The translations under genes were made by a program, and so were the position numbers. 64,000 nt of DNA from Jiangella ureilytica (GTDB taxonomy: Bacteria; Actinomycetota; Actinomycetes; Jiangellales; Jiangellaceae), in the NCBI RefSeq assembly GCF_004348545.1, contig NZ_SMKL01000016.1, positions 1 to 64,000 on the forward strand. The letters run 5' to 3'. Of the stretch, positions 40,846 to 48,921 are shown in pieces. The stretch's first letter is position 1, and every line of letters starts with the position of its first letter. The notes under the pieces were generated by a model that ran no database searches, was not told the DNA's origin, and saw only the letters and a list, made by a program, of their open reading frames with translations.

Positions 40846-43800
40846 TCAGGGGCAGGCCAGCCGCACCTCCACGACCGACGGGCCGGCAGCGGGCGGCCGG
40901 ACGCGGCGCGAGTCGGACTCATAGCCGTCCGCCGTCGTCGTGAGGGTCAGCGGCATCTCCGACCGGTCCAGCCAGCGCAGGAACCGGCCGTCGCGGTCGG
41001 TGCGGACGGTCGCGTCGGCGCCGCGGCCGTCGATCAGCACGTGCGCCCCGGAGACGGGCCCGTCCTCGCCGCCCGAACCGCAGGCCTCGCCCGTCACCGT
41101 CCCGCTCAGCGCACCCCAGCGGCGTGGCACCTCGACGGTCAGCGACACGTCGACGGGGTCGAGGGCGTACGGGGTGTCCTCGCGCACCCAGAGCCCGCCC
41201 TCGTACGTCCCCGGCTGGGCGACGCCGGCGGTGACGTGCAGCGTCACGTCGGCCGACTCGCCGGGCTCCAGCACGCCCGGCGCGTCGCCGACGGACAGCC
41301 AGGACACGTCGGCCGACCGGCAGTCGCCGTACGTCGGGAGCTGGTCCACGGTCGTGACCGGGAAGAATCCCGTCCGGTCGCTGCCGCCGACCCGGTTCAG
41401 GCCGCACGTGCTGCCGGCGCGGTACAGCACGTTCGCCGGCGCCGGGAGGTCGAGCCAGGCGTCGGTGTCGGGGTCGTACGCCCAGCTCTCGTTGGTGATG
41501 GCGGTGCCGTCGTAGCCGCCGGCGACGATCAGCTCGTCGGACGCGCCGGTATAGGCCATGCCCCAACGAGCCGCCGGCAGGTCGGCGACCCGGCTCCAGC
41601 TGTCGGTGGCGGGGTCGTAGGCGTACGTGTGGTCGGAGATGCGGCCGTCGCGCTGGATGCCGCCGGCGCAGTACACCCGGCCCTCGATACCGGCGCAGGC
41701 CTGCCGCGACGTGCTGGTGGGGTACGGCGCCAGCGTGGCCCAGGTGTCCGTCGGCGGGTCGTAGCGGTAGACGGTGTCGCGGCCGCAGTTGTTGTCGCAG
41801 CCGCCGACCACGTACAGCTGCCCGTCGAGCACCGCCCGTCCGGCGCCGTAGACGGGCATCGGCGCCGCGGCCAGGGCCGTCCACCGGTCGGTGTGCGCGT
41901 CGTAGGCCCAGGTGTCGCTCTTGGGCCGCTGGTCGCTCCACCGCCCGCCGGTGACGTAGAACAACTCGCCGATGACGGCACCCATGGCGGCCTCGCGGGC
42001 CTGCGGCAGGTCGGCGATCGGTTCCCAGCGCAGCGTCGCCGGGTCGTACGTCCAGCCCGCGCTCACCCAGTCGAGGTTCCCGGTGCCGCCGATGCCGCCG
42101 ACGGAGAAGATGCGCCCGTTCAGCTCGCCGACGGCGTTGTCGAGCACCGGCATCGGGTAGTCGGCGAGGTCGGTCCACGGCCCGTCGGCAGGCGTTCCGG
42201 CGCCCGCCGAGCCGGCCGCGCCGCCGGTGGCACCGTCGGTCGCCGGGTCGAAGCCGAGCGGCGACGCGTCGCCGTCGACCCGCACGATCTCCGCGCCCTC
42301 GGCGGCCGCGACGTCGGCCCGGCCGAGGCTGCTGCCGTCGGGCCGCAGGATCGTGCTGCTCCCCTGCCGCTCGGTGAGCTCGACGGCGACCGGCGCGGTC
42401 CCGGTGTTGGTCAGCGTGACGGTGTGCTCGGCCGACGCGCCCAGTTCGAGCGCCGTGTCGATACCGCCGGACACCGCCAGCCGGCCCGCGGCGAGTGCGA
42501 TGTCGTGCCTGGTCACGCCCCCGGCGACGACGGCGACAGCGTGCTCGCCGCGGGCGTACCGGTCGGCGTCGGCCGTGAGGACGGGCGTGACACCGGCCGC
42601 GAACAGCGCGTAGAACCCGTCCACCGACTCGACCGGGTCGAGCGGCGCCGCGGCGTCGGCCACGCGGGCCCCGGTGAGCGGCGTGCCCGTGTTGGCGTCG
42701 GTGACGGTTCCGACCACCAGCCCGCCCTCGACCGGCACGCACTCGCGGCTGCCGACGTACACGTCGTCGAGCTGCCAGGAGTACGAGCTGAACCGGGCGT
42801 CGTAGTAGTGGAACCGCACCTGGACGTCCGGATCCCCGGCGGCCTGCGGGATCGGGATCGTCCGCTCCACGCCGCCGCGCGTGTTGACGCCGGTCTGGCG
42901 CAGCACGGTCTCCCAGGTGACGCCGCCGTCGAGGCTGAGGTCGACGTCCGCGACGTCGCCGAGCTGGTTGAGCGCCTGCCGGAACCCGATGACCGGCGCG
43001 GCGTCGTCGCTGAGGTCGTAGACCGGCGTGGTCAGCGTGGTGTCGACGTAGACGCCGAGTCCGGGGCTCTGCACACTGGCCGAGGCCTCGCTGCCGCCGG
43101 TGAGGTTGCCCTTGTCGTACGGATCGTCGAACGCCCAGACCTCGCCGCTGCCGTTGCCGTCGGCGACCGTCCAGCCGGCGGGCAGGCCGTGGTCGAGGTC
43201 GGTGCCGCCGCCGGTGTAGGTGTACGCGTAGCCGGGGGTCGTGCATCGGCCGGCCACCCGGGCGAGCGCGATGTCGGCCGTCACGTCCTCGTCCCCGGCG
43301 ACGACGGTGGCGGCGCCCGGCTGGTAGCCGGGATACTCCGAGGCGACGGCGAGGGTGTACGACGCGCCCGCCGGAACCTCGACGGCGTACCGCCCGGTCT
43401 CCGGGTCGGTGTGCACGGTGCCGCCGGGCATGGCGTCGACCGTGACCTCGGCGTGCAGGGGCCAGCCCTGCCCGGACCCGTCGGTGACCCGGCCGCTGAC
43501 GGTGACGGTGTCCTGTGCCGTCAGGGCGAGCTCGAGGGTCGCCGTCTCGTCCTGCGTGACCGTCACCGAACCCGAGCGCGGTACGTAGCCGAACGCCGTC
43601 GCCGTCACCTCGTAGTCGCCGACCCGCAACGGGACGGTGTAGCTGCCGTCGTCGCCGGTGGTCCGTTCGCGCTCGACCGGTCCGGTGATCGAGATCAGCG
43701 CGCCCGGGACCGGCTCGCCGGTCGCGGCGTCGGTGACCGTGGTGACCAGCGTGCCGGTGTCGCCGACCGGTGCGGAGTCGAGCAGCGCGAGCGCGTCGAG

Positions 43801-45231
43801 CCGGCCCTCGCCGAACACGTTGTTGTCCTCGGCGGTGCCGCCGCACTCGTCGTTCGCGGTGTCGCGGGCGGTGCCGTCGAGCAGCTCGATGGTGCTCTCC
43901 ACGTCGCCGGCCAGCGCGGGCGCCGCCGACCACGCGAGCGCGACGGCGCCCGCCACGTGCGGTGCGGCCATCGACGTGCCGTCGGCGATCTCGTAACCCC
44001 CGCCCGGCCAGGCGGACCGGACGTCGACCCCGGGCGCGGAGAGGTTCGGCTTGATCTCGCCGTCCTGGCCGGTGCCACGGCCGGAGAACCCGGCGATCGT
44101 GTCCGTGACGTCGTAGGCGCCGACCGAGTAGTTGACGGTCCGGCTGCCCGGCGAGCTGGACGTCAGGCAGCGGGAGCCGAGGTTGCCGTTGGCCCAGACC
44201 GCGAAGATCCCCGAGGCCGCCCAGGCCCGGCTGATGTCCTCCATGAACGGGTCGGTCGACGGTGTCTGGCTGCCCCACGAGTTGTTGACGACGTGCGGCC
44301 GGCGGCTCGCGTCGGGGTGCTCACCGTGCGGGTCGGTGGGCTCGAGCAGCCACTGGCCCGATGCGATCAGGGCCTCGTCGGTGCAGCAGCCGTTGGTCGC
44401 GATCCAGCGCGCTCCGGGCGCCACCCCGATGGCGCTGCCGCCCGCGTCGTCGCCGGCCATGGTGCCCATGGTGTGGGTGCCGTGGCCGTTGTCGTCGCAC
44501 GGGGCCCCGCCGCAGACGCCCCGGGCGTCGAACCAGTTGTAGGCGTGGTCGACGGTGCCGTCGGCGCGGGCGCCGCGGTACTGGCCGGCCAGGGCCGGGT
44601 GGTCGTACTGGACGCCGGAGTCGATGCTCGCGACCGTGATGCCCTCGCCCGCGACGCCGTACTGCGCCCAGACGTCGTCGGCGTTGATGTTCGCGATGCC
44701 CCACTCGACGGCGGCGGCCGCGCGGGCGTGGGCGGCCGGCCGGGTGTCGGGGTCGGGCAACTCGTAGGCACGGGCCGGGTGGAGCGAGCCGACCTCCGGC
44801 TGCGCGGCCAGCTCGGCCGCGAGCTCGGCGGTGCCCGCCTGGATCCGGATGGCGTTGGTGGCCCAGAACGCCTCGTACGCGACGCCTTCCTCGTCGAGCC
44901 GTTCGCGGACGGCGGCCTGGCTGCTCTCGGCGGTCTGCCGCAGCGCGGCCGCCACCGCCGCGCCTCGCTCGGTCCAGTCCGCGACCGCCGCGGCCGCCGC
45001 CAGGTCGGCCTCGTCCTCGAACCGGACCCAGAGCTCGGCGGTGTCCTCGGCGGCCAGCTGACGACGCAGCTGCGCCTCGATGGGCGCCGGCGCGTCGGCG
45101 GCCGTCCCGGCCGCCGGGACGGCCGCCGGGACGGCCGCGGGAACCGCGGCCGTCGTCGGGACCGGGACGAACGCCGCCGCCAGCGCGAGCGCGCCCAGCA
45201 CGCCCAGCCCGGCCCGCACCCGCATGTTCAT
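40846..45231 (-). CDS. Secreted subtilisin-like protease with carboxypeptidase-regulatory and Kelch domains
   Basis: 1461 residues. A signal peptide and Ala/Pro repeat linker (to ~50) precede a propeptide (~50-150) and an S8 domain with Asp204 (ASIDSGVQ), His250 (NGHGTHTMGT) and Ser420 (DGTSMAAPHVAG). Then come two carboxypeptidase-regulatory-like beta sandwiches (~475-640), a jelly-roll/MAM-like part (~650-820), a third regulatory-like domain (~825-890), about five Kelch repeats (~1010-1270: FSVGGIGG, FYVTGG, YVVGGCDN, YCAGGI, IVAGGYDG) and a final beta sandwich. It is an extracellular endopeptidase; the accessory domains probably bind substrate or wall. A 12-bp GC repeat codes the linker. 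Confidence 0.9.
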   Translation of the reverse strand: MNMRVRAGLGVLGALALAAAFVPVPTTAAVPAAVPAAVPAAGTAADAPAPIEAQLRRQLAAEDTAELWVRFEDEADLAAAAAVADWTERGAAVAAALRQTAESSQAAVRERLDEEGVAYEAFWATNAIRIQAGTAELAAELAAQPEVGSLHPARAYELPDPDTRPAAHARAAAAVEWGIANINADDVWAQYGVAGEGITVASIDSGVQYDHPALAGQYRGARADGTVDHAYNWFDARGVCGGAPCDDNGHGTHTMGTMAGDDAGGSAIGVAPGARWIATNGCCTDEALIASGQWLLEPTDPHGEHPDASRRPHVVNNSWGSQTPSTDPFMEDISRAWAASGIFAVWANGNLGSRCLTSSSPGSRTVNYSVGAYDVTDTIAGFSGRGTGQDGEIKPNLSAPGVDVRSAWPGGGYEIADGTSMAAPHVAGAVALAWSAAPALAGDVESTIELLDGTARDTANDECGGTAEDNNVFGEGRLDALALLDSAPVGDTGTLVTTVTDAATGEPVPGALISITGPVERERTTGDDGSYTVPLRVGDYEVTATAFGYVPRSGSVTVTQDETATLELALTAQDTVTVSGRVTDGSGQGWPLHAEVTVDAMPGGTVHTDPETGRYAVEVPAGASYTLAVASEYPGYQPGAATVVAGDEDVTADIALARVAGRCTTPGYAYTYTGGGTDLDHGLPAGWTVADGNGSGEVWAFDDPYDKGNLTGGSEASASVQSPGLGVYVDTTLTTPVYDLSDDAAPVIGFRQALNQLGDVADVDLSLDGGVTWETVLRQTGVNTRGGVERTIPIPQAAGDPDVQVRFHYYDARFSSYSWQLDDVYVGSRECVPVEGGLVVGTVTDANTGTPLTGARVADAAAPLDPVESVDGFYALFAAGVTPVLTADADRYARGEHAVAVVAGGVTRHDIALAAGRLAVSGGIDTALELGASAEHTVTLTNTGTAPVAVELTERQGSSTILRPDGSSLGRADVAAAEGAEIVRVDGDASPLGFDPATDGATGGAAGSAGAGTPADGPWTDLADYPMPVLDNAVGELNGRIFSVGGIGGTGNLDWVSAGWTYDPATLRWEPIADLPQAREAAMGAVIGELFYVTGGRWSDQRPKSDTWAYDAHTDRWTALAAAPMPVYGAGRAVLDGQLYVVGGCDNNCGRDTVYRYDPPTDTWATLAPYPTSTSRQACAGIEGRVYCAGGIQRDGRISDHTYAYDPATDSWSRVADLPAARWGMAYTGASDELIVAGGYDGTAITNESWAYDPDTDAWLDLPAPANVLYRAGSTCGLNRVGGSDRTGFFPVTTVDQLPTYGDCRSADVSWLSVGDAPGVLEPGESADVTLHVTAGVAQPGTYEGGLWVREDTPYALDPVDVSLTVEVPRRWGALSGTVTGEACGSGGEDGPVSGAHVLIDGRGADATVRTDRDGRFLRWLDRSEMPLTLTTTADGYESDSRRVRPPAAGPSVVEVRLACP

Positions 45232-46805: not shown

Positions 46806-48083
<1,278 letters not shown>

Positions 48084-48123
48084 GGCGAGAGCCACATCCC
48101 CTCGATGTGTCGGTGTCTTCCGG

Positions 48124-48222
48124 GGCACCCAGGCGCGCGGTGCCACGGACGTCTGCTCCCCGGTGGTCGGTTCCACCCGTGCCCGGTCTCCCGGGCCGTT
48201 GCGCCAGTCGCGACGGGCATCA
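48124..48222 (-). promoter_or_regulatory. ZTP (pfl) riboswitch before glyA
   Basis: Read on the minus strand, the RNA has the hallmark order of the pfl motif: GTCGCGACTGGCG in the first half, GTGGAACC then CCACCGGGGAGC, and a final CCGCGCGCCTGGG, with a variable hairpin (CCCGGGAGACCGGG) between. The 3' end is 40 nt from the glyA ATG. A short stem CACATC/GATGTG with the GAGGGG ribosome site in its loop follows and may be the expression platform. ZTP/ZMP signals 10-formyl-THF shortage and turns glyA on. Confidence 0.93.
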
Positions 48223-48921
48223 CTCTAACGGTTCTCCGGGCGCCTCGGGCGCCGCGTGGCCGGACCAGTGCGCCACCGCCATCTCCGCCTCCAGCCGCCA
48301 GCCGAGGCGCTCGTAGAGCTTGCGCCCGTCGGCCGACGCGACCAGCAGCCCGGTCCGCGCGCCCCGCTCGCGGGCCGCCGCCGTCAGCGCCCCCATGACG
48401 ACGGAGCCGAGCCCGCGCCGGCGGTGCGCGGGGACGGTGAAGATGCGGTCGGCGACGGCGTCGGCGTCGCCCGCGCCGGCGACGGCCAGGTGGCCCTTGG
48501 CCGCGAGCGCGCGCGGGTCGCCGCCGGCCGTCACGACCTCGGCGACCAGGACCGGCGGCCGGCCGCTGAGCCACACCTCGTAGCCGTCCGGCGCGGCCGG
48601 CCCGAGCTGGTCGTCGAGCGCGCGCGACATCAGCCACTCCGGCGGGTGCAGCTCGAACCCGGCGGCGACGGCGGCGGCCTCGGTCCGCGCGCGGTCACTG
48701 GTGGGCGCCGTGAGCCAGCGGCTCGGCCCGCCGATCCGCGCGGCCACGTCGGCGTAGAGGTCCGGGTCGTCGCTGAGCAGGATCGTCTCGGTGATGCGGT
48801 CCGGCAGCCCGATGCGCACCGTCACGACGTCGCCGTCGACGCTGCTGCGGTAGTCGCGCGCCGTCACCCAGCCCGCGTGCCAGCGCAGCACCACGTCGCG
48901 CAGGTCCCCGTCCTCGCTCAC
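48220..48921 (-). CDS. GNAT-family N-acetyltransferase
   Basis: 233 residues from GTG 48921, which has AGGAGG 4-5 nt upstream. The acetyl-CoA loop is visible as DRIFTVPAHRRRGLGSVVMGALTAAARERGAR, and the end has GLLVASADGRKLYERLGWRLEAEM. The N-terminal 100 residues are a variable substrate-binding extension. It should acetylate an amine of a small molecule or protein; substrate unknown. It lies 2-3 nt before the riboswitch and 30 bp from the divergent GDPD gene. It probably shares a promoter with glyA through readthrough. Confidence 0.85.
   Translation of the reverse strand: MSEDGDLRDVVLRWHAGWVTARDYRSSVDGDVVTVRIGLPDRITETILLSDDPDLYADVAARIGGPSRWLTAPTSDRARTEAAAVAAGFELHPPEWLMSRALDDQLGPAAPDGYEVWLSGRPPVLVAEVVTAGGDPRALAAKGHLAVAGAGDADAVADRIFTVPAHRRRGLGSVVMGALTAAARERGARTGLLVASADGRKLYERLGWRLEAEMAVAHWSGHAAPEAPGEPLE

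What the first reader, a model, noticed from the sequence alone, without database searches (positions are those of the whole stretch)
48124..48222. ZTP riboswitch upstream of glyA
Seen: all sequence landmarks of the pfl motif in order on the minus strand. Known: ZTP riboswitches control one-carbon genes. The neighbouring stem with GAGGGG in its loop suggests translational control. The riboswitch also begins within 2-3 nt of the GNAT stop, so the two overlap in transcript.
Basis: partly seen in the sequence, partly recalled or inferred. Interest (0 to 1): 0.55.

Follow-up and report, generated by a model that had tools for sequence, protein, structure and literature searches.

The report
ZTP riboswitch in front of glyA
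This is a known type of RNA sensor (for the purine-pathway signal ZMP/ZTP) sitting in front of a one-carbon-metabolism gene in a soil actinomycete; it is largely ordinary, with an extra lineage-specific hairpin and what looks like its own promoter placed right at its first base.

Summary
Window 48120-48220 (minus) matches Rfam RF01750 (ZMP-ZTP riboswitch) over the full model, 37.2 bits, E 3.8e-4 for the whole genome, just under the curators' cut-off of 39. The core elements are present, directly upstream of glyA. The same leader stands before glyA in all 12 Jiangella genomes held, and the family matches 89 of 196 genomes of the class. The low score goes with an 8.5-bit composition correction and a covarying extra hairpin before P2, found in 18 of 18 family leaders. 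The riboswitch probably has its own transcript: a -10 box (TAGAGT, 48222-48227) overlaps the GNAT stop, and TANNNT lies 9-17 nt before the aptamer core in 61 of 65 loci, so the RNA should start at or next to P1. The SD-loop stem is confined to the genus and shows no compensatory change. No terminator was found, so translational control is likeliest, but folding did not show a switch. Verdict: new member of a known kind.

The parts
48120..48220 (-). ZMP-ZTP riboswitch aptamer, full-length match to RF01750
   Evidence: 37.2 bits, gathering 39, model 1-86/86
48222..48227 (-). putative -10 promoter box TAGAGT; predicted transcription start near 48214-48217 (usual box-to-start distance recalled, start not mapped)
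   Evidence: TANNNT 9-17 nt before ACTGGCG in 61 of 65 ZTP loci; coordinates
48150..48215 (-). P1: CGUCGC 48210-48215 with GC 48155-48156 and GACG 48150-48153, plus CU 48206-48207 with GG 48158-48159
   Evidence: 92.6% of cells paired, no compensatory change; coordinates
48178..48198 (-). extra hairpin CG-GCCCGG-GAGA-CCGGGC-A-CG inserted between the conserved ACUGGCG and P2
   Evidence: hairpin in 18 of 18 family leaders, 15 distinct sequences, mean z -3.3; swapping arms between 8 representatives kept the energy in 4 of 56 cases
48162..48177 (-). P2 hairpin GGUGG-AACCGA-CCACC
   Evidence: all 5 pairs invariant
48119..48149 (-). P3, extended to 10 pairs: UCCG and GGCACC with GGUGCC and CGGA, loop GCGCGCCUG
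   Evidence: 5 of 10 pairs show changes on both sides; 87% of cells paired, the outermost pair unpaired in 12 of 16 rows
48132..48205 (-). pseudoknot J1/2 GGCG 48202-48205 with L3 CGCC 48132-48135
   Evidence: 4 of 4 pairs present and invariant; required for the ZMP pocket in the literature (PMC7337938, PMC10907184, passages read)
48098..48103 (-). Shine-Dalgarno-like GAGGGG
   Evidence: sequence
   Evidence: 73% of cells paired, 0 compensatory
   Evidence: 98% of cells paired, 1 change on both sides, 59 of 500 shuffles as good, so weak
46806..48083 (-). glyA, serine hydroxymethyltransferase
   Evidence: PF00464 512.4 bits; only match to this family in the genome
48220..48921 (-). GNAT acetyltransferase gene upstream; its stop codon overlaps the -10 box
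   Evidence: PF13508 33.4 bits; the start codon is my choice

Best explanation
A ZMP/ZTP riboswitch of the RF01750 family forms the 5' end of the glyA mRNA. Transcription starts from a promoter whose -10 box overlaps the end of the GNAT gene, so the aptamer is the first thing made. When ZMP builds up because 10-formyl-THF is short, it binds the P1-P2/P3 pseudoknot and raises GlyA synthesis, which feeds one-carbon units back. With no intrinsic terminator in the leader, the output is most likely translation initiation of glyA. Shown: sequence, structure, conservation, gene linkage, conserved -10 box. Inferred: start site, ligand, ON direction, translational mode.
For: RF01750 full-length match. 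glyA downstream, the genome's only SHMT. Same arrangement in all 12 genomes of the genus and in 6 further family leaders. P3 covaries: 5 pairs with changes on both sides, 1 of 500 shuffles as good. -10 box in 61 of 65 loci against 0-5 of 65 in every other 16-base window upstream, including 37 of 41 loci outside this family; unchanged where the GNAT gene stops earlier, 3 of 14. The Streptomyces -10 consensus is TANNNT (PMC4895711, PMC8079986, passages read). No terminator. Gene choice fits pfl RNAs: purH, fhs, pfl, glyA, folD (PMC2864571, passages read).
Against: Score 1.8 bits under the Rfam cut-off. Forcing the aptamer core in thermodynamic folding hardly changed SD accessibility (mean 0.56 to 0.58) or AUG accessibility (0.30 to 0.39) over 18 leaders, so the translational switch is not visible in silico. 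The strict sigma-70 scan reported no promoter, and the -35 region is at most weakly enriched. The pseudoknot and P2 never vary, so they give no covariation support.
Confidence: 0.72

Rival explanations
1. The same aptamer acts at the level of transcription, through Rho-dependent termination or a terminator without a U-tract, not through translation.
For: The well-studied ZTP riboswitches are transcriptional ON switches (PMC10085676, PMC7337938, passages read). Folding showed little change in start-site accessibility.
Against: No terminator-like site in 47950-48400. P3 is a long stem here rather than the short, easily displaced stem of the transcriptional switches.
Confidence: 0.25
2. The riboswitch is part of a GNAT-glyA transcript.
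For: The GNAT stop lies 4 nt before P1, same strand, and overlaps the -10 box in 11 of 14 relatives; read-through from the GNAT gene is not excluded.
Against: TAGAGT is unchanged in the 3 of 14 relatives whose GNAT gene stops earlier (L009, L012, L029), and the -10 box has a nearly fixed distance to the aptamer throughout the class.
Confidence: 0.1
3. A decayed or repurposed aptamer that no longer binds ZMP.
For: Sub-threshold score; 4 of 12 genus members not reported by the family model.
Against: The core is nearly invariant over 17 distinct leaders while the extra hairpin and P3 change sequence but keep pairing, so selection appears to act still; the low score goes with the insert and an 8.5-bit composition correction.
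Confidence: 0.04

Closest known systems
ZMP/ZTP (pfl) riboswitch, Rfam RF01750
   Same: P1, J1/2, P2, linker, P3, J1/2-L3 pseudoknot, conserved ACUGGCG / GGGGAGC / CGCCUGGG, placed before glyA
   Different: 24 nt between ACUGGCG and P2 that carry an extra hairpin, long P3, score just under the cut-off
Thermosinus carboxydivorans ZTP aptamer (PDB 4XW7/4XWF; sequence read in PMC5393176)
   Same: Same order of conserved blocks; J1/2 GGCG pairs with L3 CGCC
   Different: It has only AACA where this RNA has 24 nt; short P3; transcriptional terminator platform (PMC7337938, passages read)
ZTP leaders before purH in Phytoactinopolyspora and a sister genus (L003-L007, L017)
   Same: Same core and similar -10 box distance
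   Different: No insert; purH instead of glyA

Membership tests
ZMP-ZTP riboswitch (RF01750) | Score at or above the curators' gathering score (an annotation threshold rather than a biological feature) | tested here: not met
   37.2 against 39 bits; orthologous leaders pass in 3 of 12 genus members
ZMP-ZTP riboswitch (RF01750) | Full-length alignment with all strongly conserved blocks | tested here: met
   Model 1-86 of 86; ACUGGCG, GGUGGAAC, ACCACCGGGGAGC, CGCCUGGG all matched
ZMP-ZTP riboswitch (RF01750) | P1, P2 and P3 helices | tested here: met
   93% of cells paired over 27 pairs, P3 with 5 pairs changed on both sides
ZMP-ZTP riboswitch (RF01750) | J1/2-L3 pseudoknot | tested here: met
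   GGCG/CGCC complementary and invariant in 17 distinct rows, so met by complementarity only
ZMP-ZTP riboswitch (RF01750) | Located before purine or one-carbon genes | tested here: met
   glyA at 46806-48083
ZMP-ZTP riboswitch (RF01750) | Binds ZMP/ZTP | not testable with these tools
   Needs in-line probing or ITC
ZMP-ZTP riboswitch (RF01750) | Ligand-dependent expression platform | tested here: inconclusive
   No terminator; no clear change of SD or AUG accessibility; start-codon stem only weakly supported

The most novel reading that the evidence does not exclude
In Actinomycetota the ZTP riboswitch is welded to its promoter: the 5' strand of P1 is the first transcribed sequence, so promoter and aptamer form one unit conserved across genes (glyA, purH and others) and families, and moving the start site by a few bases would itself change aptamer stability and gene output. 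The extra hairpin before P2 is a second, lineage-specific tuning element.
Probability: 0.3. Interest if true: 0.42.

Novelty: new member of a known kind. Interest (0 to 1): 0.22.

Why it matters
It adds a one-carbon control point in Jiangella that automatic annotation at the Rfam cut-off misses, in this genome and in 8 of the other 11 genomes of the genus. The near-fixed distance between -10 box and aptamer gives a predicted transcript start for many actinobacterial ZTP riboswitches; a 2026 study of whole riboswitches notes that native start sites are mostly unknown and that the leading sequence can change function (PMC13273304, passages read). It also shows a place in the aptamer that tolerates an added helix.

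Tried and rejected
Pairing of J1/2 UGGCG with the CGCCA at the glyA start as an OFF state: rejected as unproven, because CGYC before ATG occurs in 8 of 57 start-like sites of the window and in 11 of 39 ZTP-led starts outside the 18 family glyA leaders, a modest excess among related genes.

A small ORF (AUG UGG CUC UCG CCA UGA) overlapping the glyA start: rejected by inspection, as the frame is not kept in L019, L020 and L021.

A GTG start 12 nt upstream of the glyA ATG: rejected by inspection; not in frame in L018, L020, L021.

Loss of purH as a reason for ZMP accumulation: rejected. PF01808 gives no match in this genome but does in 11 of 11 congeners, and the two flanks of the gene lie at the ends of contigs C140 and C5, which points to an assembly gap.

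RNA fold z-score of the whole leader: uninformative, z -0.33. The Kim et al. 2015 paper on the ligand is not held, so the ligand claim rests on papers that cite it. The order-level search only repeated the family search.

Full report
Observation. The minus-strand stretch 48120-48220 aligns to the whole of Rfam RF01750 (ZMP-ZTP riboswitch) with 37.2 bits against a gathering score of 39, E 1.5e-4 in a scan of 601 bases against all families and E 3.8e-4 in the whole genome, where it is the only match. The gathering-threshold scan of the window gave no match to any family. The score line shows a composition correction of 8.5 bits and the alignment shows a 19-nt insertion; that these two cause the shortfall is inference.

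Gene context. The gene downstream is glyA (PF00464, 512 bits), the only SHMT found in the genome. Upstream on the same strand is a GNAT gene whose stop codon is at 48220-48222.

Conservation. In the family, 16 of 22 genomes match RF01750 at E 0.001 or better and 10 of 22 exceed the cut-off. In the genus, 8 of 12 match, 3 of 12 above the cut-off. The four genus members without a report (G005, G006, G009, G015) carry the motif upstream of glyA when read directly (L027, L028, L029, L032). In the class, 89 of 196 genomes match, 81 of 196 above the cut-off.

Structure. I aligned 18 glyA leaders of the family (12 from the genus, 6 from three other genera). The core is nearly invariant. Of 27 pairs in P1, P2, P3 and the pseudoknot, 93% of cells form standard pairs; 5 pairs, all in P3, show changes on both sides, and 1 of 500 shuffles reached that. 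P2 and the pseudoknot never vary, so they are supported by complementarity only. P3 is longer than in the crystallised T. carboxydivorans RNA (sequence read in PMC5393176).

Extra hairpin. Between ACUGGCG and P2 the family leaders carry 23-29 nt, where the T. carboxydivorans RNA has AACA and the purH leaders have about 3 nt. All 18 inserts fold into a hairpin of 6-10 pairs; there are 15 distinct sequences, mean z -3.3 against shuffled inserts (the weakest, L010, z -1.7). When arms were exchanged between 8 representatives, 4 of 56 chimeras were as stable as the weaker parent, so the pairing is kept while the sequence changes. A pattern scan of the genome-contig collection found 21 stretches with an insert of 18-34 nt at this place. 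By title or contig length, 12 are from Jiangellaceae and 9 from elsewhere. Of those 9, 6 were confirmed as RF01750 above the cut-off. L110 is a register error (no hairpin) and L126 is probably chance; the other 7 have hairpin-forming inserts with z from -2.0 to -4.2, including Myxococcales and Solirubrobacterales bins. The insertion point is therefore reused, and the helix is peripheral. Whether published consensus figures already draw it I could not see.

Promoter. TAGAGT at 48222-48227 fits the actinobacterial -10 consensus TANNNT (80.4% of S. coelicolor starts, PMC4895711; 88.7% of sequences in S. lividans, PMC8079986; passages read). I took 72 ZTP loci, 65 of which had a recognisable core. 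TANNNT occurs in the window 8-24 bases before ACTGGCG in 61 of 65; upstream 16-base windows that do not overlap it hold 0-4 of 65, and the two partly overlapping ones 3 and 5. The distance from box end to core is 12-17 in all but two or three cases. By my reading, the 37 positive loci outside this family (of 41) come from nine other GTDB families. The misses are L072, L073, L076 and L079. A -35 hexamer is not clearly enriched (7 of 61 reach 4 of 6 matches; about 4 expected from shuffles). The strict promoter scan found nothing. Of 14 relatives with a GNAT gene upstream, the stop overlaps the -10 box in 11 and lies 19-51 bases before it in 3 (L012, L009, L029); the box is TAGAGT in all 14. So in 11 of 14 coding constraint could help keep it, in 3 it cannot. 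In this GNAT gene the only TTA codon is codon 232 of 233 and lies in the -10 box. Taking the usual distance of about 6-7 nt from -10 box to start (recalled), transcription begins at or next to the first base of P1.

Expression platform. No terminator-like site lies in 47950-48400. An alternative stem that encloses the start codon (48081-48096) is paired in 98% of cells but has only one two-sided change, and 59 of 500 shuffles do as well. The two stems exclude each other. Folding 18 leaders with the aptamer core forced changed mean SD accessibility from 0.56 to 0.58 and mean AUG accessibility from 0.30 to 0.39. So translational control is the likeliest mode by exclusion, not by demonstration. 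A 2026 study reports almost no transcriptional variants of fluoride riboswitches in Actinomycetota (PMC13273304, passage read), which fits.

Known background. Weinberg et al. 2010 list glyA among the genes most often linked to pfl RNAs (PMC2864571, passages read). The mechanism of transcriptional ZTP switches is from PMC10085676, PMC7337938 and PMC10907184 (passages read). Searches for 'ZTP riboswitch' with 'glyA' (1 paper), with 'Streptomyces' (5 papers), 'RF01750' (11 papers) and 'pfl riboswitch' (13 papers) listed nothing whose title or shown abstract start concerns Jiangella or the promoter spacing. This covers only the open-licence library.

Verdict.

Noticed in passing
48220-48228: The only TTA codon of the GNAT gene (codon 232 of 233) coincides with the -10 box, as if the promoter dictates a rare codon.
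   Followed up: partly
L003, L004, L005, L006, L007, L017: Phytoactinopolyspora and a sister genus have a second ZTP leader before purH, without the insert; 6 of 20 purH loci of the family show the core, none in Jiangella.
   Followed up: partly
genome G000, contigs C140 and C5: purH is absent from this assembly; its flanks lie at two contig ends, so it is probably an assembly gap, although completeness is given as 99.97%.
   Followed up: yes
L002 (G017), L046, L053, L054, L061: ZTP leaders before a second, distant SHMT (43-47% identical to this GlyA) in one relative and in other families.
   Followed up: no
L112, L118, L119, L120, L121, L122, L124: Hairpin inserts at the same place of the ZTP aptamer in unrelated bacteria, including Myxococcales and Solirubrobacterales bins.
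   Followed up: partly
40846-45231: A 1461-aa minus-strand ORF with subtilisin-like motifs (recalled) next to the region; not examined.
   Followed up: no
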